A stretch of DNA of 40,797 nucleotides from an uncultured bacterium (GCA_946404285.1 CAMJDC010000005.1:1-40797); one strand, 5' to 3'; positions 73-40,797 are shown, numbered from the stretch's first letter. Numbers and translations are program-made. Notes: a model not told the origin generated them from the letters alone.

Positions 73-232
73 AACCCCCTCCGGCTTTCAGCCACCTCCC
101 CCTAACAGGGGAGAAAATCAAAATTAAGAAATTTGCTCCCTGTGAGGGGAGCTGGCGAACAAAGTGAGACTGAGGGGTTACAAAACACAAAAAATCCACT
201 TACCTTCAGCCTCCCCTTTTTAAAAGGGAGAA
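73..232. repeat. Dispersed inverted-repeat element (GC-rich, non-coding)
   Basis: Two related arms face each other: 73-112 carries CCCCTCCGGCTTTCAGCC followed by CTCCCCCTAACAGGGGAG, and 135-179 reversed reads AACCCCTCAGTCTCAC ... CTCCCCTCACAGGGAG. Each arm has its own small stem (CTCCCC/GGGGAG type). A third partial copy lies at 204-232 (TTCAGCCTCCCC, then AAAGGGAG). The block is far richer in G+C than its surroundings. It looks like a mobile, non-autonomous repeat or an RNA-structure repeat. No coding frame was seen in it. Confidence 0.6.
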
Positions 233-450
233 CCTTTCATGTTAAAAAGATTCCTCCTCTAATAGAAAGAAATACATAATATGCATAATTACAATAGCAC
301 AAATGTCAATAACTTGTCAATTTCGTCTATCCCCGGAAGCAGTTTTGACTAATCAGAATTACAATCTACAAAGTTGACATTTCCCATATTTATGACAACA
401 ACTCGTCATTTTTTTCAAAATAAAAAAAAAGACCGAAAGATAAACTTCCA

Positions 451-468
451 GTCTAGGAGCTCCTAGAC
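451..468. repeat. 18-bp perfect palindrome
   Basis: GTCTAGGAGCTCCTAGAC is identical to its own reverse complement. It sits in a 300-base stretch (240-572) with no convincing gene. It could be a protein-binding site or a tight hairpin, but it has no U-tract on either side and so is not a normal terminator. Confidence 0.45.
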
Positions 469-572
469 CGCCAAGCCAACTCTTATAGATTGTGAGTTGT
501 ATAAAGAAATTTATTTTCACAAACCTCTGTATAGAACTCAAACCCTTCCACAACAAATAAACAAAAGGCGAT

Positions 573-785
573 CTAGATTAGATGCATCATCTCATCTTGG
601 GTAAGATTATCAAATGCTGAATAAACGACTTCCGAATACAGATAATCCTTTATCCAAATTCAAGCGAAAACGCTCAATTCTATGAACCCACACAAGTTAA
701 TCAGTCTTTTTTCCTTTTCAGGATTTTTTTGTTTTTTATTTACACCCCCAAGATAGATTAATCAAACAATTATACAAGAGAAAAT
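573..785 (-). pseudogene. Possible remnant ORF without start codon
   Basis: Read with TGA as glycine, this frame is open from a TAA at 786-788 to a TAG at 573-575. It gives about 70 residues: a hydrophobic stretch (CIIVGLIYLGG), a Lys-rich stretch, a second hydrophobic stretch (LINLCGFIELSVFAGIWI), and an acidic tail (FDNLTQDEMMHLI). The tail looks protein-like, but there is no ATG, GTG or TTG start in the frame. It may be the 3' end of a decayed membrane-protein gene, or chance in AT-rich DNA. Confidence 0.25.
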
Positions 786-934
786 TTAAAAAATGCTCTA
801 ACCATTAGTTCCCACATATCACAAATGTTGTCTACTTTAATATTTACATATTTTAGAAAAAAGACATTTTATTCAATATTAAACAACACAGAATAATAGT
901 CTGTTACTGCGATATTTAAATTTATTACAAAAAT

Positions 935-3900
935 TTACTCCCTATGCGCCTCAAGTATCTCTTCCTTTGTATTTCTCAATTTTTGGATTGTAGTAGCCTT
1001 ATCTCATAAAGTTGAATTTAAACTAGTTCAAATCTGATAAACCACATCATCAACAATCAAAAAACGGTCATGCAAATTTGCCAATGTACGCACAACTATA
1101 GGATTTCACTCTTGATCATTCTTACTACTCAACAATTCTGACAAAACATTTGTATTTCCCCCAACTTCTCCAGAATACAATGTTTTTCTTTTTTCATACG
1201 CAATAATTCACTTTACTCAAATTCTCCTATGAGACAATAAATCAAATGTTGCTCAATCTATATAAGGCTCTATTATCATCACAGATCTATTGGCTTTCCT
1301 AATTTTATTGATAATAAATTCATGTATTTCCTGAGTTTGTCATGCTTTAAATATATGACCATAGTTTCACTTTCATTCACCATTCTGATTTTCTTCAAAT
1401 TTTTTCATTTTAGCCTCCAACTCTTTTACCTTTTCTTCCAGACCTAGTATAGTTTTATTCTTATCATCAATTTCTGTTTCCATTTTGTGCTTCATTTCCT
1501 CTGCATTTTTTAACTTTTCTTTCGCTTCTAAAATCAACTCTTTATCTCACTGTTCTTTTGCTTCCTCTAATTGAATAAGTGCATTTTTATATTTAATTTC
1601 AACCTCCTCTTTTTGGATATTAGCATTCTTAATTTGTTCCTCCGCCTCTGTTTTTACTTTATCACTTCATTCTTTTAAAGCATCAATTACCTTCGACATA
1701 TCCTCAATTTTTAACTGCAAATCCAAAATAACCTTCGCCCTATTTGAAGCAATTTCTTCAGATTCTTTCTTCTCTTTTTCAGCTTTTTCCAATTTTTTTT
1801 CAGCTTTTAAAATCAGACTATCATTCCCCTCATTCTTTGCATGTTCTAATTCCTCAACCGCCTTTTTCAGATTTTTTTCAGCTTCTTCTTTTCACTTTTC
1901 AGCTAGTTTCACTTGTCATTCAGCATCTTTTACCAAGTTTTCATTCACAGAAACTTCATTAATCAACTCACTAATTCTACTTTGCTGAGAGATAATTTTA
2001 TCATTCAGATTTTCCCTTATTCTTTTATTTTCTTCTCTCAAAATTCTATTTTCCTTTTCAAAATCTACTCCAACCTCAAGTATATGATTCTTTATAGAAT
2101 CCTCATTAATAATCGACTCAACACTTTCTTTCCCAAATATTTTTATCTGCATATTTATCTCTTTCTGAGTTTTTTCATCCAAAATTTTAAATTTTCTAAC
2201 TTTACCATCTTTTCAATACACTTCCAATATTTCTCACTCAAAACATAAATCTGAGGCTTTCAATTGTGGTTTTAAAGACTCTGTATCCTCTATATCATCA
2301 AGTATTTCTATTTCATCCGATAATTCACACACATTAAATTTTTTATTTAATTTTGCATACGGAATATACAAACAATTTTTAGCTCTAGAAATTCATACAT
2401 ATCATACATTCAATTCATCAATTAATTCTGCCCTAGGTGATGGATATGTTCATTTATACATTCACAACAAAAACACATACTCCCACTGTAGTCATTTTGC
2501 TCAATGAATAGTCATACATTGAACTCATGTTTTATTATTTTCCACAAATTCCGTAAATTGTACCGTCTCGGAAAATACTGAAAAATCTCATTTCGCAACA
2601 TCCTCATTAATTGTAAAAAGTTTAGAAATAATAAGCTGATAATGTCACAAATTGAGTTTTTCACTAAAATTAAGATGCTTCAAAAATATTTTATCATAAT
2701 ATGAGAAAAGCAAATTACCCAACGTCATATCCCAAGTATCTGATATTATTCATTCGAGCAATTTTAAAAGTAATTTTTCTGGATCCAGATTTTGTTCAGT
2801 TATACACTTTATCAAATCTTTTACCGTCGTAATTCCATTCCACCTTATAGATTTTGTTATACTTTCACGACCATACAATCTTTTTTCTATCCCAGCAAGC
2901 TGCCACATATCTACATGATTTGGATTAAACACCATATCCAAAAAATTAAAAATCTCTCTAACAAATAGATCATCAATCAAATTACCAGATTTATAATTAC
3001 ATATAATTCATTTCGAACGTAATAAATTCACTATCACTCTAGTCTCATCCGATATTCTACTTCTAGAAAGAATAGCAATTTCACTAGGCTTCACCCCTTT
3101 ATTAAATACCAAATCCTCAATTTTATCAGCCACTGCCCTATCTAAAGAATATATACTATCAAAGGCATCAATAGAAAAATCTCATTCATATTGATTAAAT
3201 GCATTCAATTCATACTTACTCATATCTCATTGCAAACCTTTATAGTTATCCAAAAATACATTTATCTTATCTACTAATTTAGTTCAAGATCTAGAATTAT
3301 ATGTCAAATATTTTTTATCAATATTTTTAAATTCTTCTTCTGCCCATCTAAAGGATTCACTAGATGCACCTCTAAATCAGTAAATAGCCTGATGTTCATC
3401 TCAAACCAACGTAGTATAGAGACCTAACGCTTTAATTATTTCAAACTGAATATGTGATACATCTTGAAATTCATCCACCAAAATATGTGTATATCAAAGC
3501 TCTTTAAATTTTTCAAAAAAATCTTTATTCTGAAGCATTTCATACGTAAACAATAGAGAAAAATCATGAGTTAAATAGTCATTTTTTATCAAAAAATCTC
3601 TCAATTTTGAAAAAATTTCATGAATAAGCTCTCATTTACATTCATATTCCTCTCCAACGAAATACAACTCTCACTCATTAAATGATGACAAAATTCAATC
3701 ATATTTATTCACAACCATTCATACCATTCACTCCAACTTTCTATCGTATCAAAGCGTCTCAAGTATCTGACATAACTTGTAATCATCCACTATCACAGGA
3801 TTCTTAGAATATCATAAATAATCATAATATCTCAATTTTCTAAGCATATCATTACAAAAACTATGGATTGTTCCTACTTTTCATAAAATATCATTCATCT

Positions 3901-4753
3901 CAAACAAAGTATTCAATCACATCTCATTTAATTTCATATTCAGTTCCGCTAATATTCTCTGTTCTAATGATTCTGCTGCACTTTTAGAAAAAGTTATTGC
4001 TATAACTCACTTTCATGAATTATTTATTGTAACGCCTCATTTTTTAGAAGTACTTACTTTCACATCAATCAATTTATCCACAACTTTATGGATTAAAAAA
4101 TGTGTTTTCCCTGTCCCTGGACCCGCTTGAACAATTTGATTCTTTTTCAATGAAACATTTAATGCTTCCATAAATTCAGTATCTCTTGCTTCATTTCTAA
4201 CTGATTCTTTGTATATCATTTCCCACTTAGAAAGCCCCATTCTTTCCAATATTTTTTCCTCCACCAATCATTCAAAATCTGAAAAATTAATTACATCTAA
4301 TATATTATCCAACATACAAATACAGATCCCATTTTTATTATAAGATAATAAATTATTCTCAATTTCTGCCCCAGACCCAAAACAAATTATAGATTTAATA
4401 CAACGATTACTTTCTCTATTAGAATCCAAAAATTGATCCAATGCAACTTGTTGTTGTTCACACTGTTCTATCGGATTTTTATTATTATATATTATTTCTC
4501 AATTATTTTTCCAATTCCCATGTTCATCTCTACTTATTTTTCATGTCCAGTTTTTAAAATTCAAAATATAAAATGTGTTTCATACAACCACTAATCAATC
4601 AAACTCTACACCTCAAAGGATAAAAGCATCTGATAAATAAATCTGAGATTCCAACTTCACTACCTCTAGTTTATCTTTTATTTTTTCATAAAAAGTACTC
4701 TTTTCAGAGAATTCATATCATTTTCATGTCCAATAAGTTATGTTATTATTCAT
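935..4753 (-). CDS. NERD / UvrD-Rep-type SF1 helicase / coiled-coil / PLD-like fusion protein
   Basis: A 1272-residue protein, open throughout with TGA as Gly and ending in TAA. Order of domains: a NERD-like (nuclease-related) region, about residues 20-150, with GVEFDGLVV, FYILNFKNWTGKI and NNKNPIEQ; an SF1A helicase, about 200-800, with motif I AGPGTGKTH (~210), VGTIHSF, motif II LVDEFQD (~425), motif III VGDEHQAIYGFRGA, motif V TIHGAKGLQW and motif VI VGISRAKN; a long charged coiled coil, about 900-1120; and a C-terminal PLD-like region with MIIEPYIDG and HDRFLIVDD. The family unwinds DNA using ATP. The NERD Glu of the usual E-x-K is Asn (NFK), and the PLD box has HxR instead of HxK, so both nuclease-type domains may be degenerate. 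The ATG at 4751-4753 overlaps the end of the upstream nuclease gene by 8 bases, so the two are translationally coupled. Likely DNA repair or phage defence; function unproven. Confidence 0.9.
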
Positions 4754-5765
4754 GAGTTTTTTTCTTACATATACATCTAAAAGCACATGTTTCACATTTT
4801 TTACAATCCTCAGTTTCAGGAAATTTATCAATAGATACCGGATTATTATTCACTATATCATTATCAACCAAATTTTCACTAAGCTTCTCTATTTGTTTAT
4901 TTATCTCCATTTCATACGACTTAAAAGATTCTATTCAGATCTTATCTCATACTGATAATGCTCAGTTATTATCGAGATTTCCATAAAATCATTCTATTTT
5001 TAAGTTTTCATCTCAACCATTATCCGTATATATGCGATATCACTGAGCTAAAAGTTGTTCTGGAAGTCCTCAATCAAACGATGAAATGTCCCCAGTTTTC
5101 CAATCTACTACAATATATTTATCCTCTCATTTAACCTTTAAATAAAAATCTGGTTGCACATACAAATCAACATTTCAATCAGCTACATTCTCAGATCTAA
5201 ATTTCATCGCATTAAAATCTTTTTTTGGAGGTTCTGTATATATTTCATACTTGTCATAATTTTTTAAAATTTCCTGATATATTTGAGATTTACCGAAATT
5301 AAACAAAGAATTTCTTATGTTATCTATAATAATTTCCACATATTTATCATGTTGATCTTCTGGAATTTCTTTATAATAATGTTCTACCAATCAAATCATA
5401 TCTTTATATTTATCCTCACTCGCAATATATCACTTGCTATAATCTCTCTGAGCTGACAAAAAATAAGGTACCCTTATCTTAGCTTCGATCAGCTTATCCA
5501 ACCATTTTTCCTCATACTTTTCAATTGTAAACGTTTTATCCTTTTTCAATTCCAAAAAATATGACGCCAAAATACTATGAATAACATCTCACGTCCATCA
5601 TGGTATAGTACTTAATTTTTTTAAAAATAGTACAGTCCATTTATCTACTTTTTCTCAATTTATCTCCACTCAATCCAATTTATCCCAATAATAATTCAAA
5701 AAATACTTTCTATTACATCGATTGAATGTAGACATTCTACTTGGAGACCATGATAATCCTCACAT
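4746..5765 (-). CDS. Cas4/AddB-like PD-(D/E)XK nuclease with cysteine (Fe-S) cluster
   Basis: A 339-residue protein. The N-terminus SPSRMSTFNRCNRKYFLNYY matches the usual start of RecB-family PD-(D/E)XK nucleases, including the early Cys (~16). The core follows at about 200-225: QPDFYLKV (active Asp), then YIVVDWKTGD (D-x-K). A Gln/Tyr motif (QLLAQGYRIY) resembles the family's QxxxY. The C-terminus DCKKCETCAFRCICKKK supplies several cysteines; with Cys16 this is the arrangement that holds a 4Fe-4S cluster in Cas4 and AddB. There are no cas genes in the window. It is the first gene of an operon with the NERD-helicase fusion (8-base overlap), so it probably supplies the nuclease activity for that helicase, as AddB or RecB domains do. 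The start is the first ATG after an in-frame TAG (5793-5795). Confidence 0.88.
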
Positions 5766-5807: not shown

Positions 5808-5835
5808 ACTATATATAATTATAGTATAATGTCAA
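5808..5835 (-). promoter_or_regulatory. Promoter of the nuclease-helicase operon
   Basis: On the minus strand, TTGACA (5830-5835) is followed after 16 bases by TATAGT (5808-5813), 42 bases before the ATG at 5765. It separates the nuclease-helicase operon from rmuC, which ends at 5853. Confidence 0.6.
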
Positions 5836-5852
5836 TACTTTTTATAAATCAA

Positions 5853-7082
5853 CTACCCATCTAAAGATTCAAATTTAGTAATATTACTAAGCTTTTGATT
5901 CATCTTATTTGTCCTCGTTGTAACCAAAGTATTAATTTCTTCATCAACCTCTTTAATCTTTTTCTGAGCCTTTGCCAAAACCTCACCAAACTTTCAGAAT
6001 TCCGTTTTCACCTCTCATAGCACATTCCAAACTTCACTAGATCTCTTTTCTATAGCCAAAGTTTTAAATCACATTTGCAAACTATTAAGCATCGCCACTA
6101 AAGTTGTAGGTCATGCTACCATAATTTTCAATCATTTTTGAACGCTTTCCAACAATTCAGGAGACCTCACCACTTCAGCATACAGTCACTCAATAGGCAA
6201 AAACATAATTCAAAAATCTGTAGTATCAGGCACACTTATATACTTATCTCTAATATCTTTAGCAGATTTTTTTATTGCCAATTCAAGCTCTCTTGTACAA
6301 CTTTTTATAGCATCTTGATCTCAAGAATCATAAGCATCTACTAATTGATGGTATCTTTCCAATGGGAATTTTGCATCCACAGGAATATACACAGGTTTTC
6401 ATTCCTCTTTTCATGGGAGTTTTATGGCAAATTCCACCAAATCTTTTGAATCAGGTTTAGTTTTTACGTTCTTATCATACTGTTCTGGAGACAAAAATTG
6501 TTCTAAAATCTGCTCCAACTGAATTTCTCATAGATTTCCCCTTGTTTTTACATTAGACAATACTTTTTTCAAATCTCAAACTCATGTCGCCAAATTCTGC
6601 ATTTCTCATAGTCATTTATGCACCAATTCCAATCTCTCACTCACCTGTTTAAATGATTCTCAGAGTCTTTCATTCAAAGTTTTTTGTAATTTTTCATCGA
6701 CCACTAATCTCATTTTTTCTAGTTGTTCATTATTATCTTTCTGAATAGTTTGTAATTTTGAATCAACTTTTTCGGTCATAGATTCTATAGTTTTAGTCAC
6801 TTTCTCCATTTTATCATTAATTGAATTATTTAATGAATCCAACGTTTTTGTAATAGCCTCCCTCAAAAATTTTTCATTTTCCCTATTTTCCTTCAGTAAA
6901 TCAGCAAATTTAACATTCACTATATCAATTATTGAACTCTTAAACTCTCATAATTCCTTAATTACTGGAGTCATATCATCTCTTTTCCTAAAAATTATAG
7001 GAATCAGTTGCAAAATAATAACACATGCCAAAAGAATCGTAATCAATATCAACTCACCCGTCCAAGTTATTTGCATTTGCAT
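5853..7082 (-). CDS. rmuC: DNA recombination protein RmuC
   Basis: A 409-residue protein. It has an N-terminal membrane segment (about 8-30, LILITILLACVIILQLIPII), then a long coiled coil (about 45-190, with EKVDSKLQTIQKDNNEQLEK), then the RmuC core with GNLGEIQLEQILEQFLSPEQY, YIPVDAKFPLERY and FGIMFLPIEGLYAEV. Family members restrict recombination at inverted repeats and carry a PD-(D/E)XK-like fold; DAKFPL is the conserved region. The start is chosen at 7082 (MQMQITW) because the next upstream ATG at 7088 is followed at once by TAA; 7076 is also possible. No Shine-Dalgarno sequence is visible. It lies just upstream of, and on the same strand as, the nuclease-helicase operon, so 935-7082 is one block of DNA-processing genes. 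Confidence 0.93.
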
Positions 7083-7219: not shown

Positions 7220-8962
7220 ATGAAATTAAAAAAATTATTCTGAAATCGGACAAATGCCATCCAAACTTTTCCTGTTTCTCACATTTTGCTCATCACATTA
7301 ACCATCATTTGAATCTTACAAATCGAATGAATCATTGATTTAGATTCACCTGACTTGATACTATGACTAATTTTAGCATTCATAATTAGCTGTTATTGAC
7401 CATTATTTCTCATTCACAGTAAAATAAAAAATAAAAATCTGATTAATCGAACATTACAGATTTGATCCATAATTCTATGATGAATATACTACGTAATATT
7501 ATATAATACTGACATAGATAATCTTACATATTCTGAATGATTACTCTATTTACGAATTATTCCTCTTACTTTACTTTGAATCCCACTAATTATTGCATTA
7601 TTACACAAAAAACATGAACAAAAAATCCGATTTTCATGGACTAGTTTATTCGTTGCCATCGTTTTTTGATGAATTGCATGAAGCATTGTTCGATGATGAA
7701 TCTCCGGTGCTTTAGCTTCAATTGAAGCACTTTTTGATGTCAATATCGATTCAGATTTATACGGAGATATCTGAATGATTTCCATGGTTCTATTAGCATG
7801 ATCATTCGTATTTAATTATTATCTCACACTCACAGAAGAAATAAATAAAAAATCTGACTTTGAAATTAAACCATCTCGCTTAAGAAGAATTTTCTGATCA
7901 TTCATTTTCTTACCTCTTGCTCTAATCTATCTAGCAATTTTTGGAGCTTACGGAATCAAAATTCTTATTACATGAATTCGACCAAAATGAATCATCGTAC
8001 GACTTTGAATCTGATATTTTGCTTTATGAATAATCAGTTCATACCTAATCTTTCCAGACAAGACTAAAATTCATGAAATCATAAATAAAACATTATATGT
8101 GAGTTTCATTCTCATTTCATTTATGATGATATGAGCCATTGCAAAAAGAATCAATCAATATTGAATCACAATCAATAGATGTTTCGTATGCTATATTATC
8201 GCATTCATAATTATTTTTTCAGCTTTATCTCTTATTTTTACCAAAAAAAGACTGCTTACTTTTGTATCCACATTATGAATTTTAGCTTTTATTGCTGTTT
8301 ATGGACGACCCATAAATGCAAGCAATATCTCATTCAATTCACAAGTAAACAGACTTGAAACACTCCTATCCAAAGAGAATATTTCACTTCCACTTACTCA
8401 GTGAGCTCTAAAAGATGCAAATGAAGAATCTACTAAATTAATTATGTGAACCCTTGACTGACTGATGGAGAATTACAATAAAAACAAAATCATCAATAAA
8501 ATAATCAATTTCGAATACAAAGATACTTATCGATCTTCTCGCTATGATATCAGAGAATTTTTAGGTGTAAATACAGATTACGACTATTACTACCCTACTT
8601 ATAAATACCGAAGTTACAGGCAATACGGAAAGGAAAATCATTCAATAGATGTTACATGATATTCAAAAATACTATACTTTGAAAAATCTTATAGTAAAAT
8701 GAATGATTTCACTCTAAATATACAAGTAGACGACCAAGAATATAAAGTCGATTTGACCGATTATTTAGAAGAACTTAAGAAAAAATCTGATATTTATGCC
8801 AAATCTGAATTAACAGATGAAGAAAAGGAAATTTTAAGAAATCCAGCTTTAGTACTCACGGAACCTGATTATAAACTAATCATCAATAGTTTCGGAATAG
8901 AAGAAAATAGAGAATGAGAAAGTCAGATTTATAACGCAGAATGATATATTCTCATTAAATAG
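7220..8962 (+). CDS. Multi-pass membrane protein, DUF4153-like
   Basis: A 580-residue protein. The first ~400 residues form about ten hydrophobic segments (for example ILLITLTIIGILQIEGII, IIPLTLLGIPLIIALL, IIAFIIIFSALSLIF). The last ~170 residues are soluble and charged, with Tyr-rich YDYYYPTYKYRSYRQYG and LTDYLEELKKKSDIYAKSEL. The layout and the segment SFIFLPLALIYLAIFGAYG recall DUF4153 membrane proteins; the assignment is by pattern only and the function is unknown. TAA codons upstream in frame (7214-7216) fix the start at ATG 7220. Glycine is mostly TGA. It converges with the small membrane protein gene on the other strand, 3 bases apart. Confidence 0.8.
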
Positions 8963-11064: not shown

Positions 11065-14000
11065 CTAATCAATCATTCACATCATCTTCGCTGCTCTATA
11101 TATCATTAATATTGCATATGACCTACGCTCTACTAAGTTTGGATTTATATCAGTTAATATTCAAGCAGCTTTCAATTTATTCAAATGCTCCACATAGTAA
11201 TATCTTGAATTCTTTTCTGCCTCGTATTTATCTCACCACAATATTCTAGACAAGATTGTTCCAAATTCTGCCCTACTTACAAACTTTCTAGGCATAAAAT
11301 CAGGGATTGGAGTATAATCTGCTGTATGAATTCACATTCTTAATAATTGACATGAAGTAATCATATAATTTTTCATCTCCTGATTATATCAAGCCATACT
11401 ATCTGCAAATGCTGAACAATCTTTACTTCTATCAGGCTGTGATCATAATTCTAACATTTCAAATACAGTAGTTATCTTCGCCATCTCAGCTCTATTTAAG
11501 AACTCTCATAATCTAGCTCACTGAATCGTATCACTCTTTATTATTCACTCCTGACATGCCCATATATAAGCTTCATTAACTTCAGCTGAATGTTTAGATC
11601 ATTCAATTGAACATTTTTTATCCGGAACTACTGGATCAGGAGTTGGAGTTGGATCAGGTTCAGGATCTGGATCTGGTTCAGGGTCTTTTCAACATTTTCC
11701 ATCACAACGATCTCATGAAAAATCACCATCAGGACAATCATCTTTTTTACATCATCCTCATCATGAACTTCATACTTTCTGCCATTGAGCATACAATATA
11801 ACTTCTCATTCAGTTGCTAAATTTTTAACAACTTGACCGTTTTTATAACTTGTTCAATCTCCTTCAGGTGAAGTGTTCCATCATAAGAATTTATATCAAT
11901 TTCTTGAATAACTATTTTTCGTTAATGATTTCTCCTGATTATAAGTCATTTCTAATCATGCCATTGTTCATGCTGTAGCCCCATTTCAATCAAATATAAT
12001 TGTATAATTATTTGGTGCCCAATGAGCATATAGTTTAACCACTCACGTAGTCGCCAAATTTTTAACTTCTGCTTCATCTAAATACCAAGTACCAGTTCAA
12101 TCTGGATTTCTATTCCATCCCGTAAAATGATATCACTCCCAAACAAAGGCATTAGGAGTCAATTTCTTTGTCTCATCATAAGGAATTGTCTGATTTAACA
12201 TCGTTCAAGTAGCATCATCTGCATTTTTATTAAACTCTACTTCATATGTTTTTGCATTCCACTGAGCATACAATGTAACTACTCATGTAATTGCAAGATT
12301 TTTCACCAATGCACCGTTAGCATATCAAGTTCAATTTCCGTCTTTTTTCGTATTCCATTCCACAAAATTAAATCATACTTTCCCATACTGATTGGCATGT
12401 AAATTCTCTGCAACATCATATGTTAATTGTTGATTTCACATAGTTCAATTTGTTGATCCATTTCAACTAAATACAATAGTATATTTATTTGGTTGTCGCT
12501 GTGCATACAACACAATTTGTCATCATGTCGCAAGATTTTTAACTTTGTCACCATTTGCAAATCAAGTTCATGATCAATCAGGTTTTGTATTCCATCATGT
12601 AAAAATGTATCATATTCTATCAAATTCATTAGGATTTAATGTTCATGTCTCATCGTAAGTTATAATTTGATTCGGCATAGTTCAATTTGTTGATCCATTT
12701 CAACTGAACACAACTGTATACGTATTAGGCTCCCATTTCGCACATAAAGTAATATCTCAAGTAACTACACCTGGAATGGTAAAGAAATCATCTCCATCAC
12801 AAGTTAATGTCCATCCCGTCAAAATATATCAAGTTTTTATTGGACTAGGAATCTGACCACCCGTTAAATTTTCTCACGATTCTACAACAACAGGAGAAAT
12901 AACTGGAGGTGTTCATCCATTTGGATCAAATGTTACTGTAACAGGTACACTTACTAATTCACATGTATTAGTCCCTGTATTTCAATTATAATTAGCATCA
13001 CTACACGACCACTCACACGCTCATGGAGCCGGATTGTTGGCAACATATGTCCACTCCTTACTTAAAGGTGTCAATTCTGTTCAATCTCATGTCCACTGTT
13101 GAGTAAATTCATCACTTCAAGTTACAACAAAACTTCAACTTGGAGAAATTCATCAACACTTAGGAAGATCCCAATATATTTGAGCTGTATCATTTGGAGA
13201 AATGTTCAAACTTTGAATATCTCCAGAAGAATCTCTATATCTCAATACTAATCAACTATTACTATTTTGAAATCACGACAAATCTGGTTTTATCTTTATT
13301 CTAAATGCATAGATAGTTCACTCCTCTGTAATAGAGTCTCATGACACATCCAAAGCTTCACCTCATACTCTAGACACTTCGCTTCATATCTCATCATCCA
13401 CATCAACAAGCATTCAAGCGTCTACTATTGGCTCTATTCCTCAAATAGCCTGAAATACCTCCTGTATATTAGAAATACTTGCATCATAATAATTTCAAGT
13501 AGAAGCCACACGTTCTAAAACTTCTCTTCCTGGATCCAAAACCTCATATCATATAGTATATATTATAACACCATTTTCTTTTAATTCATCTGCTTTCTCT
13601 ATAGCTTTTTCCTTCGCCATATCATATGGGGAAACATCATGCACAAGATCATTTCAACTATAATATTCAGTTGGAACTCAATCACTCATTATCACAAGAT
13701 TTTTCACCTCACATCCATTTGCACTCAACAAATTATTTCCAGCCCTAATCAATCAATGATGAAGATTAGTATATCACATAGAAAGTTCTCCACTAAAATC
13801 ATCAGCATCAAAGGCACTATGAATGAGTGATTGTTTAGCACTACTTTCAGCTTTTGTATTAAAAAATCGTAATCAAATTCTAGAATTTGGATTTGAATCA
13901 TAAACTGTTTCAGAGAATAAAATAGCTCCAGAAACAGCATTAGTCCATTTTATCAAAGTACCTGTGTTATAATGAGAAACCCCACCACTCAAACAAGTTC

Positions 14001-14412
14001 AATCTGGTTGTATCCATTCTTCTAAACAATCATGCATACTAGCTGAAGTATCAAATAATACCATTGTACAAGTATTCAAAGCATTTTTAGTAATTTTCTT
14101 TCACCTCACTCAAATATTTACATCATATACTCATGTAATATCTGTTGGCCACACTAGTTTTCTAACCTCTACATCTCATGAATTTGCAAAACTTCAAGCA
14201 CTTTGCCTTGCATCCCTAACACATCCACGAACGGCGTTGCCTTCCGCACAATTACAAGCTACTACATTTCCATCAGAATAACATACTGGTTCTAGACTAG
14301 CATCATCCCACAAAGAATTAAAGTCTTCTACTGAGATACTCTGTGCTAGTACGATACTTCATCATATAAGTAGCAGAAATCCAGCAACAAATAGCTTTAG
14401 ATTTAATTTCAT
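11065..14412 (-). CDS. Secreted surface protein: VWA domain, five InlB B-type repeats, SLH-like C-terminus
   Basis: A 1115-residue protein. A signal peptide (MKLNLKLFVAGFLLLI..., cut after VLAQ) is followed by a Cys-containing region (VCYSDG, CNCAEG, RGCVRDA). Next comes a von Willebrand A domain, about 115-310, with the MIDAS motif DTSAS (121-125) and MSDGVPT. A linking region with further Cys pairs follows. Then come five InlB/List-Bact B-type repeats (pattern: FSGNGSTNGTM ... TYD ... GWNT..DG.GT ... VKNLAT.G ... LYAQW), a Cys/Asp/Gly-rich and Pro-rich linker (DPEPDPTPTPDP), and a ~170-residue SLH-like region (EAYIWACQEGIIKSDTI, LNRAEMAKI, FVSRAEFGTIL, YYVEHLNKLKAAGIL). The likely role is metal-dependent adhesion, anchored at the cell surface. 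It is a paralogue of the adjacent gene. Confidence 0.92.
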
Positions 14413-14457
14413 GATACGAAATTAATATAAAATAAAAAAACATAAAATAATAATAAC

Positions 14458-14487
14458 ATTATACGCACAAAAATCAATCAAATTTTA
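14458..14487 (-). promoter_or_regulatory. Promoter/leader element of the first VWA gene
   Basis: On the minus strand TATAAT (14458-14463) lies about 46 bases before the ATG. It is preceded by TTTGATTGATTTTTGTG. The last 17 bases of that block recur upstream of the paralogue (17404-17425). Confidence 0.5.
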
Positions 14488-14527
14488 TAATAAATCTCAA
14501 CCAAAACTAATATTTTGTTACATTATT

Positions 14528-14558
14528 TAAAAAAAGAATGCCATCTTACTGACATTCT
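14528..14558 (-). terminator. Terminator of the second VWA surface-protein gene
   Basis: On the minus strand AGAATG and CATTCT form a stem around a 12-base loop, followed by seven T. It lies 21 bases after the stop codon and is nearly the same as the terminator at 11014-11044. Confidence 0.8.
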
Positions 14559-14578
14559 CTTAAAGAAAATATTATTTA

Positions 14579-17338
14579 CTAAATTTTTCACATCATCTTC
14601 GCAGCTCTATATATCATTAATATTGCATATGACCTACGCTCTACTAAGTTTGGATTTATATCAGTTAATATTCAAGCAGCTTTCAATTTATTCAAATGCT
14701 CCACATAGTAATATCTTGAATTCTTTTCTGCCTCGTATTTATCTCACCACAATATTCTAGACAAGATTGTTCCAAATTCTGCCCTACTTACAAACTTTCT
14801 AGGCATAAAATCAGGGATTGGAGTATAATCTGCTGTATGAATTCACATTCTTAATAATTGACATGAAGTAACCATATAATTTTTCATCTCCTGATTATAT
14901 CAAGCCATACTATCCGCGAATGCTGAACAATCTTTACTTCTATCTGGTTGTGATCATAATTCTAACATTTCAAATACAGTCGTTATCTTCGCCATTTCCG
15001 CTCTATTTAGGAACTCTCATAATCTAGCTCATTGAATTGTATCACTCTTTATTATTCACTCCTGACATGCCCATATATAAGCCTCATTTACCTCTGCTGA
15101 GTGTGTAGATCCTTCGATTGAGCACTTTTTATCCGGAACAACTGGTGTTGGCTCCGGTATAGGAGTTGGTTCAGGATTAGGTTCAGGCTCAGGTTTTGGT
15201 TCAGGATCCTTTCAACATTTTCAATCACAACGATCTCATGAAAAATCACCATCAGGACAATCATCTTTTTTACAACCTCATCCTCATCACGAACTTCATA
15301 CTTTTTCCCATTGAGCATACAATATAACCTCTCATTCTGTTGCTAAATTTTTAACGACTTGCTCATTTGTATAGGCAGTTCAATTTCCATCAGGAGAAGT
15401 ATTCCATCATAAGAACTTACTTCAGTTTTTTGAATAACTATTTTTAGTCAATTTTATATCAGTATCATATACGGCACCTAACGGAGACATTGTTCACGCC
15501 GTAGCCCCATTTCAATCAAATATTATTGTATAAGGATTAGGTTCTCGCTGAGCATACAAATCAAATTGTCATGTAGTCAACAGATTTTTAACGACTTGCT
15601 CATTTGTATAAGCAGTTCAATTTCCAACAGGAGAAGTATTCCATCATGTAAAATGATATCATTCTTTAACGAATTCATTATCATTCAAAGTTCAAGTTAC
15701 ATCATAAGTAAATTCCTGATTTCACATTACACCATCCGTTGAACCATTTCAATTAAATCTGACCTCATATACATTAGGTTTCCATGCAGCTTTTAGTGTA
15801 ATATTTCATGTTACAGTTCATGGAAGAATAAATTCTTCATTATGCAATGTCCATCATGTAAATTGATATCATGTTCTGATAGGCTGAACTGTAGGTTCTT
15901 CTGCATTCATTCAAGAAACAACAAGCTGAGAAGGGATATTACCCGTTCAACCATTTACATCAAAATCCACCTTTACCCATAATTCACATGTATTTGTAAT
16001 TGTATTTCATCAATAATTATTATCAATACAATCCCACTCACATTCCCCAGGAATTGAATTTGGTACATATGTCCAATCTTTAGACTCAGGAACTAACGCA
16101 TTTCAACTCCATGTTTGCTCAAATTCATCACTTCAAATAATTACAGAATTTCATCAAGGATAATTTCATCCACATTTAGGGAACTCCCAATAAATTTGTG
16201 CAGTCTGATCTATATTCAGAGATTGCGAAACATTGTCTACATCATCATACGTCAATGTTAATCAACTATTACTATCTTGGAATCATGTCATTCAAGGTTT
16301 TATTCTAATTTGAAAAGAATATACAGTTCCTGGATCAACTAACTGATTTTCAGTAGGCACATTAATATCACTTCAACTTAAATCAAAAGCTGATCAAATT
16401 CCATCATCGATAGTATAAGGAGTTCAAGCATTCAATTCAACAAAATTTCATATATTCAGAAATACATCAATTATATTTTCTGTCGTTGCTCCAGTATAAT
16501 GATCATTATCTTGTGCAATTGCTTTCAATGTTTTAATAGCCGTAGATGAAGCTTTCACATCATATCAAATAGAATATATAATAATTCATTTATTCTTCAA
16601 TTTTGTAGCTATCTCTTTTGCTTTTCATGGTCAAACCGAAGCTGAAGTTGGAAGATTTGCATCTCAATCACTCATCAAAACAATATATTTAGAATCACAA
16701 TCTTCTGCTCAATCCAGCATATTTTCAGCCTTTAACAATCAATCATATATATTTGTATTTCAAGAAGGTGTAAATCCTGTAAATAAAGATTCATCAAATA
16801 CCGCATTCTGCAATCACCTTCAAACACTTGCTGATGCAGCAAAGAATACCAATCAAATTTTATTATCTGTTCAATCAATCAACGAATTTGAAAATCCTAT
16901 AGCTCAAGACACAGCATCAGATCGCTTAGTTGGGCTACCTCCATTATATCAGTTTTTCATACTTCCAGATTTATCAAATACAACTACAGAGCATACATCC
17001 AAACTATTCACTGGCTGAGGTATACGCTTTCATCCAACCCAAATATGGACATTAAAAAGTCAAAGAACATCACTAGGCCATACTAGTTTTCTAACTCCTA
17101 CATCTCAGGGATTTTCAAATACTCATACTGATTGTTTTGCATTTCTCACGCAACCACGAACCGCATTACCTTCAGTACAACTACAACTTACAACACTAGT
17201 TCCAGAATAACAAACATCAGTAAGTCCATTATTCCAAATAGAATTAAATTGATCCACAGAAAGATTTTGTGCTGAAGCAAAATTTCACCAAGCACACAAC
17301 AATAATCATGCAACAAATAGCCTAAAATAAAATTTCAT
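14579..17338 (-). CDS. Secreted surface protein: VWA domain, three InlB B-type repeats, SLH-like C-terminus
   Basis: A 919-residue paralogue of the neighbouring surface protein. A signal peptide (MKFYFRLFVAGLLLC..., cut near FASAQ) is followed by the same Cys-rich region (VCYSGT, CSCTEGNAVRGCV). The VWA domain carries a full MIDAS DKSGS (about 122-126) and VLMSDGDAN. It has only three InlB-type repeats, against five in the paralogue, then a Pro-rich linker and the SLH-like C-terminal region. The N-terminal two thirds have diverged clearly, but the C-terminal ~180 codons are almost identical in DNA to those of the paralogue. It ends in TAG at 14579-14581. It presumably forms part of the same adhesive surface layer. 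Confidence 0.92.
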
Positions 17339-38875: not shown

Positions 38876-40797
38876 ATGACAGACATTACACCACTTGAAA
38901 AAGTGAGAAACCTAGGTATCATGGCGCATATTGATGCCTGAAAAACTACTGTAACTGAAAGAATTCTTTTCTATACAGGAAGAACACATAAAATCTGAGA
39001 AACTCACGACTGAGAATCTCAAATGGACTGGATGGACCAGGAAAAAGAAAGATGAATTACTATTACATCAGCTACTACTGTATGTTTCTGGAAGGGGCAT
39101 CATATTAATATTATCGATACTCCAGGACACGTTGACTTTACAATTGAAGTAGAAAGATCTCTACGTGTACTTGACGGTGCTGTTGCTCTATTGGATGGAC
39201 AGGCTTGAGTAGAACCACAGACTGAAACTGTATGGAGACAGGCTGACAAATATAACGTTCCTAGAATGATCTTCGTAAACAAGATGGATAAAATGGGAGC
39301 TGATTTCTACAATTCAGTTGAAACAATTAAAGAAAGATTAACTGATAAAGCAATTCCTATCGAATTACCAAATGGTGCTTCTGATACTTTTGCAGGAGTT
39401 GTAAGTTTAGTTAACATGAAATACTACACTTTCGAGGGAGAAAAATGAGTAAATGTAGTAGAACACGAGATTCCTGAAGAATTAAAAGCCAAAGCTGAAG
39501 AATATAGAGAAGCTTTGATAGATAGAGTTTCACTTTACGATGATGAATTAGCAGAAAAATTCCTTGAAGGAGAAGAAATTCCTGTAGAATTACTCAAAAA
39601 AGCTATCAGAATCTGAACTTGTAGCTGAGACTTATTCCCAGTTATGTGTGGATCTGCTCTTGGAAATAAATGAGTTCAATTAATGATTGACGCTGTAGTT
39701 GATTTCTTACCTTCTCCATTGGATAGAGGTGAAATCGTTGGAACTGATCCAGATGATCCAGAAAAACAAATCACTAGAAAATCTGATGTAAATCAACCAG
39801 CTTCAGCTATCGCTTTCAAGATTATGACTGATCCTTTCGTAGGTACTTTAACTTACGTTAGAGTTTACTCAGGAGTTATCAAGTCTGGAGATATGCTTTT
39901 GAATCCTATTACAGGACAAAAAGAAAGAGTTGGAAGACTTTTGATGATGCACGCCAATAAGAGGGAAGAAATTACTGAAATATCAGCTGGACACATTTGT
40001 GCTTTCCTATGACTTAAAGATACTAGAACTGGAAACACGTTATGTGATCTCAAGAATCCTATAGTTTTAGAAAGTATGACATTCCCTGAGCCAGTTATCT
40101 CAATCGCAGTTGAACCAAAGTCAAAAGGTGATCAAGAAAAGATGTGACTCGCTCTTGCAAAACTATCATACGAAGATCCTACTTTCACATACCATTCAGA
40201 TGAAGAAAGTGGTCAGACCATTATCTCTGGAATGGGAGAATTACATCTAGAGGTACTTATTGAAAGGATGAGGAGAGAACATAAAGTAGAAGTTAATACT
40301 GGAGCTCCTCAGGTAGCATACAGAGAAACTATCACTCAAAACGTTGAATGAGAATGACTATTCAAGAAACAGTCATGAGGACGTGGACAGTACGGACATG
40401 TTGTATTGAAACTTGAAAAGAATGATGAAAAGATTTACGATTTCGAATCTCAAATTAAAGGTTGAGTTATTCCTAACGAATTCATACCTGCTATCGATAA
40501 AGGAGCTAGAGAAGTTGTTGCTCAAGGACTTTTAGCTGGATATCCAATCATCAACGTAAAAGTTATTCCTTTCTTCGGATCTTACCATGATGTGGATTCT
40601 TCAGAAGTATCATTCAAGGTTGCAACTCACAAAGCTATGAAAGATGCATTCTTCAAAGCTGGTCCAGTTCTTCTAGAACCTATAATGTCAGTAGAAGTTG
40701 TTACACCTGAAGAATATGTAGGTACAGTTATGGGAGATATTAGTTCTCGTAGATGACTTATCCTTGGACAAACTCCAAGAGGAAATGCTACTGCTAT
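38876..40797 (+). CDS. fusA: Elongation factor G (3' end cut by the window)
   Basis: About 640 residues of the usual ~700 are present. G1 [15 protein letters not shown] (its P-loop Gly is TGA), G2 RGITITSA, G3 DTPGHVDF, G4 [10 protein letters not shown] and G5 CGSALGNKG are complete, followed by domain II ([20 protein letters not shown]), III ([16 protein letters not shown]), IV ([28 protein letters not shown]) and the start of V ([20 protein letters not shown]). It moves tRNA-mRNA through the ribosome. Codon use is less AT-biased than elsewhere and mixes GGA with TGA for Gly, as expected for a highly expressed conserved gene. It is the strongest single proof of TGA = Gly. Confidence 0.98.

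What the first reader, a model, noticed from the sequence alone, without database searches (positions are those of the whole stretch)
935..5765. Cas4/AddB-like nuclease coupled to a NERD-SF1 helicase-coiled coil-PLD fusion
A two-gene operon with 8-base overlap and its own promoter pairs a cysteine-cluster PD-(D/E)XK nuclease with a 1272-residue helicase carrying two more nuclease-type domains. I do not know this exact architecture. It resembles AddAB/RecBCD in logic but lacks their layout, and there are no cas genes. It may be an anti-phage system or a replacement for RecBCD in a reduced genome.
Basis: partly seen in the sequence, partly recalled or inferred. Interest (0 to 1): 0.8.

Follow-up and report, generated by a model that had tools for sequence, protein, structure and literature searches.

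The report
Accessory nuclease–helicase cluster in a Gracilibacterium
A tiny bacterium that reads the stop codon TGA as glycine carries a cluster of three genes (two nuclease-family proteins and a four-part helicase) that none of its sampled relatives has as a cluster; the parts resemble those of anti-phage systems, but no function has been shown.

Summary
Under code 25 there is a 339-aa Fe-S-type PD-(D/E)XK nuclease and, overlapping it by 8 bases, a 1272-aa NERD / UvrD-helicase / coiled-coil / PLD-fold protein. Three corrections. (1) RmuC, the gene just upstream, belongs to the same accessory set: it occurs in 2 of 49 genomes of the order, and no other genome of the order carries the full-length helicase protein. 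(2) The NERD has N where the catalytic Glu/Asp of ExK should be, and the PLD has HxR instead of HxK (in its whole family), so only gene A and the helicase motor look clearly intact. (3) The PLD tail is of PADLOC candidate PDC-S05 type. In 84,980 species genomes that tail was otherwise found on RhuM/ORF6N-type or short unassigned proteins, except in one other Gracilibacterium, where it ends a 2034-aa RecQ-UvrD protein beside Cas12a-Cas4. A congener shows about 0.25 kb where this genome has 6.3 kb with exactly the three genes. Best reading: an accessory DNA-degrading helicase-nuclease system against foreign DNA. This is inferred; no infection data exist. It fails membership of Mokosh, Gabija, AddAB/RecBCD and Cas4.

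The parts
4746..5765 (-). Gene A: 339-aa PD-(D/E)XK (PDDEXK_1, AddB/Cas4-like) nuclease with four Fe-S-type cysteines; G59/H63, D206, D221-W-K223, Q237 motifs present
   Evidence: Pfam PF12705 3.9e-13; motif G/H/D/DxK/Q and the four aligned Cys positions conserved in all 31 aligned relatives
935..4753 (-). Gene B: 1272-aa NERD / SF1A UvrD helicase / coiled coil / PLD-fold protein; overlaps gene A by 8 bases
4379..4675 (-). NERD (nuclease-related) domain of gene B; catalytic ExK reads N-x-K (ILNFKNW, residues 63-69)
   Evidence: PF08378 2e-12; alignment with eight other NERD domains
2351..4168 (-). SF1A (UvrD/PcrA-type) helicase core, residues 196-801, motifs I (AGPGTGKT) to VI intact
   Evidence: PF00580/PF13361, motif positions
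1394..2080 (-). Predicted coiled coil, residues about 892-1120
   Evidence: Charged, helix-like composition; weak SMC matches
938..1366 (-). PLD-fold C-terminal domain (residues about 1130-1272) of the PDC-S05 type; LHDRFLIVDD (HxR instead of HxK)
   Evidence: PADLOC PDC-S05 3e-25; H, D, R, D, G, S invariant in 41 sequences; model pLDDT 81.6; PDB PLD folds
5853..7082 (-). RmuC-family protein (409 aa), N-terminal hydrophobic segment and coiled coil; same strand, 87 nt upstream of gene A; part of the accessory cluster
   Evidence: PF02646 3.6e-77; present in 2 of 49 genomes of the order, absent from 7 of 7 congeners
5808..5835 (-). Candidate promoter TTGACA-16-TATAGT for genes A-B
   Evidence: 11 of 12 matches; consensus match only
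7220..8962 (+). Conserved flank: DUF4153 membrane protein, 75-92% identical in three congeners; its 5' neighbour differs in all four genomes
560..870 (.). Left flank: conserved non-coding block (candidate RNA gene), next to DUF4153 with about 0.25 kb between them in congener G035

Best explanation
It is an accessory three-gene DNA-processing cluster (RmuC + Fe-S PD-(D/E)XK nuclease + NERD/SF1A-helicase/coiled-coil/PLD protein) that most likely acts against foreign DNA. Proposed mechanism, inferred from anatomy: B loads on a DNA end, gap or fork, using its NERD-like and PLD-like end domains for binding or recognition and the coiled coil for oligomerisation or reach; the UvrD-type motor translocates 3'->5' and unwinds; gene A, made from the same message with overlapping reading frames, supplies the clearly intact nuclease that degrades the exposed strands, a division of labour like AddAB/RecBCD but with motor and nuclease on separate chains; RmuC, probably membrane-tethered, adds a further DNA-cleaving activity. 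Shown here: genes, domains, motif state, sporadic distribution, variable site. Inferred: complex formation, polarity, DNA target, anti-phage or anti-plasmid role.
For: Full-length B in 1 of 49 genomes of the order and in none of the other genomes of a 380-genome phylum sample, nor in plasmids, phages or 84,980 species genomes. RmuC in 2 of 49. Gene A is a long branch, 26-31% identical to the vertically inherited paralogue family. Congener G035 has about 0.25 kb between the left block and DUF4153, where the window has 6.3 kb with exactly these three genes. DUF4153 has a different 5' neighbour in all four congeners; in G039 that side carries a type I-like MTase/specificity/AAA cassette, and OLD-like ATPases lie on that side in G040 (Pfam, PADLOC) and in G039 (by sequence likeness). 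Another Gracilibacterium (G025, UR.bin133) has a UvrD-CC-PLD half homologous to B (residues 978-1268, 31% identity, E 4e-25) in a 2034-aa RecQ-UvrD protein next to Cas12a (3.6e-186) and Cas4 (4.5e-69). Parts match defence models: PDC-S05 tail, NERD to PDC-M16A and MkoA. An RmuC domain mediates phage defence in Shield (PMC10270631).
Against: No other genome carries A and B together, so co-function rests on overlap and strand alone. PADLOC hits to GajB and RTasHel reflect the common UvrD fold. NERD (NxK) and PLD (HxR) may be non-catalytic. No integrase, att site or target duplication was found, and the left flank is a repeated element, so the gap comparison could reflect rearrangement. Codon use is host-like (TGA/Gly 0.63-0.81), so there is no sign of a recent donor with another code. 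No infection or biochemical data.
Confidence: 0.5

Rival explanations
1. Accessory DNA end-resection/repair complex: a split AddAB/AdnAB-like machine (SF1A motor B, Fe-S nuclease A, RmuC limiting recombination) gained by this lineage to process its own broken DNA or incoming DNA for recombination.
For: SF1A motor plus AddB-like Fe-S nuclease is the AddAB/RecBCD part list; RmuC is classically tied to recombination (established knowledge); host-like codon use.
Against: Present in 1 of 49 genomes of the order, with no trace in congeners at 71-87% identity in the flanking gene; AddA/RecB equivalog scores far below cut-off; NERD and PLD ends are not known from repair AddAB enzymes.
Confidence: 0.25
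2. Cargo or core DNA-processing genes of a mobile element or decayed provirus integrated beside DUF4153, serving the element's own replication or competition with other elements.
For: Variable site and absence from congeners; the closest whole-core PHROG is a phage helicase (phrog_1967, 1.6e-63); the candidate RNA element is repeated in the genome.
Against: No integrase, capsid, relaxase or transposase among the ORFs of the window by sequence inspection; no full-length match in 50,697 phage or 72,556 plasmid records or in IMG/VR.
Confidence: 0.17
3. Unrelated accessory genes that lie side by side: RmuC, a duplicated nuclease and a chimeric helicase, with no joint function.
For: Genes A and B are never linked in the other 29 order genomes that have an A-type nuclease.
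Against: 8-base overlap of A and B, common strand, only 87 nt between RmuC and A, and all three missing together in congeners.
Confidence: 0.08

Closest known systems
Mokosh (types I and II)
   Same: Combines NERD, an SF1 helicase and a PLD domain; the only plasmid protein hit by the window NERD (Pseudomonas luteola, E 2e-3) is a full MkoA next to MkoB. In type II a helicase is N-terminal and a PLD C-terminal in one protein (PMC11672841).
   Different: Mokosh uses a COG1112-type helicase, and type I also a Ser/Thr kinase; here the helicase is UvrD-type, there is no kinase, a separate Fe-S nuclease and RmuC are added, and no Mko model covers the protein.
PADLOC candidate PDC-S05
   Same: The C-terminal PLD(HxR) domain is of this type (3e-25).
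   Different: Most members found are RhuM or ORF6N-type DNA-binding domain + PLD of about 290 aa; here the same tail is fused to a helicase.
G025 (Patescibacteria UR.bin133) RecQ-UvrD-CC-PLD protein beside Cas12a-Cas4
   Same: Homologous UvrD-CC-PLD half.
   Different: The N-terminal part is an extra segment plus a RecQ helicase instead of NERD; no overlapping nuclease gene.
AddAB / RecBCD / AdnAB
   Same: SF1A motor plus Fe-S PD-(D/E)XK nuclease logic.
   Different: Nuclease and motor on separate chains, no AddB helicase-like half, NERD and PLD ends; sporadic, not housekeeping.
Shield (ShdA) and other RmuC-containing defence systems
   Same: RmuC-family protein with an N-terminal hydrophobic segment in an accessory cluster; RmuC domain shown to act in phage defence (PMC10270631).
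   Different: No ShdA model hit at E <= 0.1 (best RTasRmuC 1.4e-13); the partners differ.

Membership tests
Mokosh | COG1112-type SF1 helicase | tested here: not met
   Helicase is PF00580/PF13361 UvrD-type
Mokosh | Ser/Thr kinase (type I) | tested here: not met
   No kinase domain in A or B
Mokosh | PLD nuclease | tested here: inconclusive
   PLD fold present but HxR and PDC-S05-type; MkoB match only 0.005 and mainly on the coiled coil
Gabija | GajA OLD-family ATPase/TOPRIM partner of a UvrD-like GajB | tested here: not met
   GajB models hit through the UvrD core (8.3e-47); no ATPase/TOPRIM match in gene A or RmuC
AddAB/RecBCD | AddA/RecB with C-terminal nuclease; equivalog score | tested here: not met
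   addA_Gpos 51.5 bits against cut-off 707.65; recB 65.3 against 696.05; C-terminus is CC-PLD
Cas4 | Cas4 family with cas genes nearby | tested here: not met
   PADLOC Cas4 E 0.0093, 339 aa; no cas gene recognised among the window ORFs by inspection
PDC-S05 | PLD(HxR) domain | tested here: met
PDC-S05 | Stand-alone protein of about 290 aa (typically RhuM/ORF6N-type N-terminus) | tested here: not met
   Fused to NERD-UvrD; contrast
   Full-length B 1 of 49, RmuC 2 of 49
Anti-phage defence system | Reduces phage infection | not testable with these tools
   Needs an infection assay
NERD nuclease | D...(E/D)xK active site | tested here: not met
   First Asp kept (EFDGL, residues 50-54), ExK is NxK

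The most novel reading that the evidence does not exclude
A new type of modular anti-MGE machine of code-25 Gracilibacteria in which an SF1A helicase-coiled coil-PLD(HxR) chassis takes interchangeable N-terminal modules (NERD here, RecQ in UR.bin133) and works with separate nucleases (Fe-S PD-(D/E)XK and RmuC here; Cas12a-Cas4 as neighbours there).
Probability: 0.25. Interest if true: 0.75.

Novelty: new variant of a known kind. Interest (0 to 1): 0.5.

Why it matters
Defence in reduced, host-dependent CPR bacteria is little known. If true, this shows a large multi-domain DNA-degrading system being gained by a 1.15-Mb genome, a defence-type PLD tail moving from small RhuM/ORF6N-type proteins onto helicases, and a variable site in congeners where more such systems can be sought.

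Tried and rejected
Direct scans with the whole 1272-aa protein found no relative in genome contigs or IMG/VR; UvrD hits in plasmids and phages cover only residues about 124-809. Gene A finds nothing in phages or plasmids. Short NERD matches in 191 of 380 phylum genomes are mostly 60-95-residue stretches in ORFs of about 120 aa, probably YraN-like (inference), and were not counted as NERD-helicases. The 'RmuC is a housekeeping neighbour' idea was dropped. The idea that G039/G040 show 12-20 kb inserts between orthologous borders was toned down: the left-hand RNA block has a second copy in the own genome, beside NifU-like and PDDEXK genes as in G039/G040, so only 'the 5' side of DUF4153 differs in all four' is claimed. 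A first gene-A tree with unturned loci was discarded. Rfam gave no family in the window.

Full report
What is there. The window needs NCBI table 25 (TGA = Gly). On the minus strand, gene A (5765-4746, 339 aa, 16 TGA-Gly) overlaps gene B (4753-935, 1272 aa, 52 TGA-Gly) by 8 bases. With table 11 the region falls apart, so the long frame itself is evidence for the code. Gene A is PDDEXK_1 (3.9e-13); gene B is NERD (2.1e-11) plus UvrD-helicase (2.5e-35) plus UvrD_C (2.7e-18), a coiled coil, and a C-terminal domain that matches PADLOC PDC-S05 (3e-25). Folding that domain with 40 relatives gave pLDDT 81.6, and Foldseek found PLD-fold proteins (TrmBL2, NucT, FAM83, Nuc, phosphatidylserine synthase, PLD6). 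The PLD call, weak by Pfam (0.024), is therefore sound as a fold.

Active sites. Gene A keeps the RecB-type motifs GxxxH, PD, DWK and Q, plus the N-terminal Cys and three C-terminal Cys aligned with those of 30 relatives; these positions are invariant in all 31. The helicase keeps motifs I to VI. The NERD keeps the first Asp, but the ExK motif reads NxK. The PLD has HxR where the classical motif is HxK; the R is invariant in all 41 sequences of its family, so it is a family trait and not decay. 'Two more nuclease-type domains' is right by fold; catalysis is open for both.

Distribution. Gene B full length: only this genome among 49 of the order, and none of the others in a 380-genome phylum sample; UvrD-only hits elsewhere. 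Gene A-type nucleases occur in 30 of 49 genomes, and this genome has a second one at C7, which is the vertically inherited copy (88-89% to three close congeners); gene A is a long branch at 26-31% to all. No A-type nuclease in another genome of the order lies next to a helicase or RmuC within the fetched 1.5-kb flanks. RmuC, 87 nt upstream and co-directional, is in 2 of 49 genomes and in no other member of the genus. So the unit to consider is RmuC-A-B, outside the finding's coordinates.

Site. The divergent DUF4153 gene at 7220-8962 is 75-92% identical in congeners G039, G040 and G035 (protein alignment; 71-87%), which also shows that the contig belongs to this genus. On its 5' side the window has RmuC-A-B, G035 has only about 0.25 kb before a block homologous to window 726-863, G040 has a decarboxylase, and G039 has small ORFs followed by a type I-like methylase/specificity/AAA_15 cassette; OLD-like ATPases are also on that side in G040 (AAA plus OLD-like TOPRIM by Pfam) and in G039 (by sequence likeness to it). 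The left block has a second copy in the genome, so insertion against rearrangement cannot be decided, but gain or loss of exactly these three genes near DUF4153 is clear.

Relatives of the parts. A scan of 84,980 species genomes for the PLD(HxR) tail gave 76 loci; by ORF analysis most are RhuM-type, others carry N-termini that look like ORF6N ('RGQQVMLDxDLAxLY', by eye) or are short or truncated ORFs; the only helicase is L161, Patescibacteria UR.bin133 = G025 (the scan uses short peptide patterns and will miss divergent copies). G025 encodes a 2034-aa protein with RecQ and UvrD helicases, a coiled coil and the same PLD tail; B residues 978-1268 align at 31%, E 4e-25. Its downstream neighbours are Cas12a (3.6e-186), Cas4 (4.5e-69) and a Cas1-like partial ORF (by eye). 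This is the only defence linkage found for the chassis. NERD plus SF1 helicase without PLD also occurs in G031 (helicase motifs by eye). The NERD's only plasmid hit is an MkoA beside MkoB, i.e. Mokosh type I.

Interpretation. Sporadic presence, a variable site and defence-type parts favour an accessory anti-foreign-DNA role; the motor-plus-nuclease logic is AddAB-like but membership fails. Mokosh and Gabija membership also fails. Literature used: Shield shows an RmuC domain in phage defence (PMC10270631); NERD and PLD domains recur in Mokosh, with NERD also in Nhi-like systems (PMC10952713); a Mokosh domain summary is in PMC11672841. That NERD-helicase fusions have long been known is from my own knowledge. 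Everything on mechanism is inference.

Noticed in passing
window 430-775 (minus strand): Candidate structured RNA of about 340 nt with no long ORF: TGTATAAT-like start, 10-bp stem plus T-run terminator at 454-430, fold z-score -4.6, conserved at 77-82% in congeners, second partial copy at G000:C19:7390-7490, no Rfam match.
   Followed up: partly
L140 (G025:C11:38000-52000): Gracilibacterial Cas12a-Cas4 locus with a Cas1-like partial ORF next to a 2034-aa RecQ-UvrD-CC-PLD protein; near-identical short HTH (transposase-like) ORFs lie on both sides of that gene.
   Followed up: partly
L240:11437-16752 (G039): Type I-like defence cassette (HSDR_N_2+N6_Mtase, Methylase_S, AAA_15 ATPase) a few kb from the DUF4153 gene in a congener; it also matches MADS proteins mad2, mad3 and mad5.
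   Followed up: partly
window 11065-17338: Two adjacent large secreted-type proteins (VWA-like start, repeat region, near-identical C-termini by eye), probably a tandem duplication.
   Followed up: no
window 38876-40795: The EF-G gene (cut by the window end) uses TGA for only 29% of glycines, against 43-85% in the other genes tabulated.
   Followed up: no
window 76-210: Short palindromic segment near the start of contig C5 (...CTCCCCTGTTAGGGGGAGGTGGCTGAAAGCCGGAGGG...), possibly a dispersed repeat that ended the assembly.
   Followed up: no
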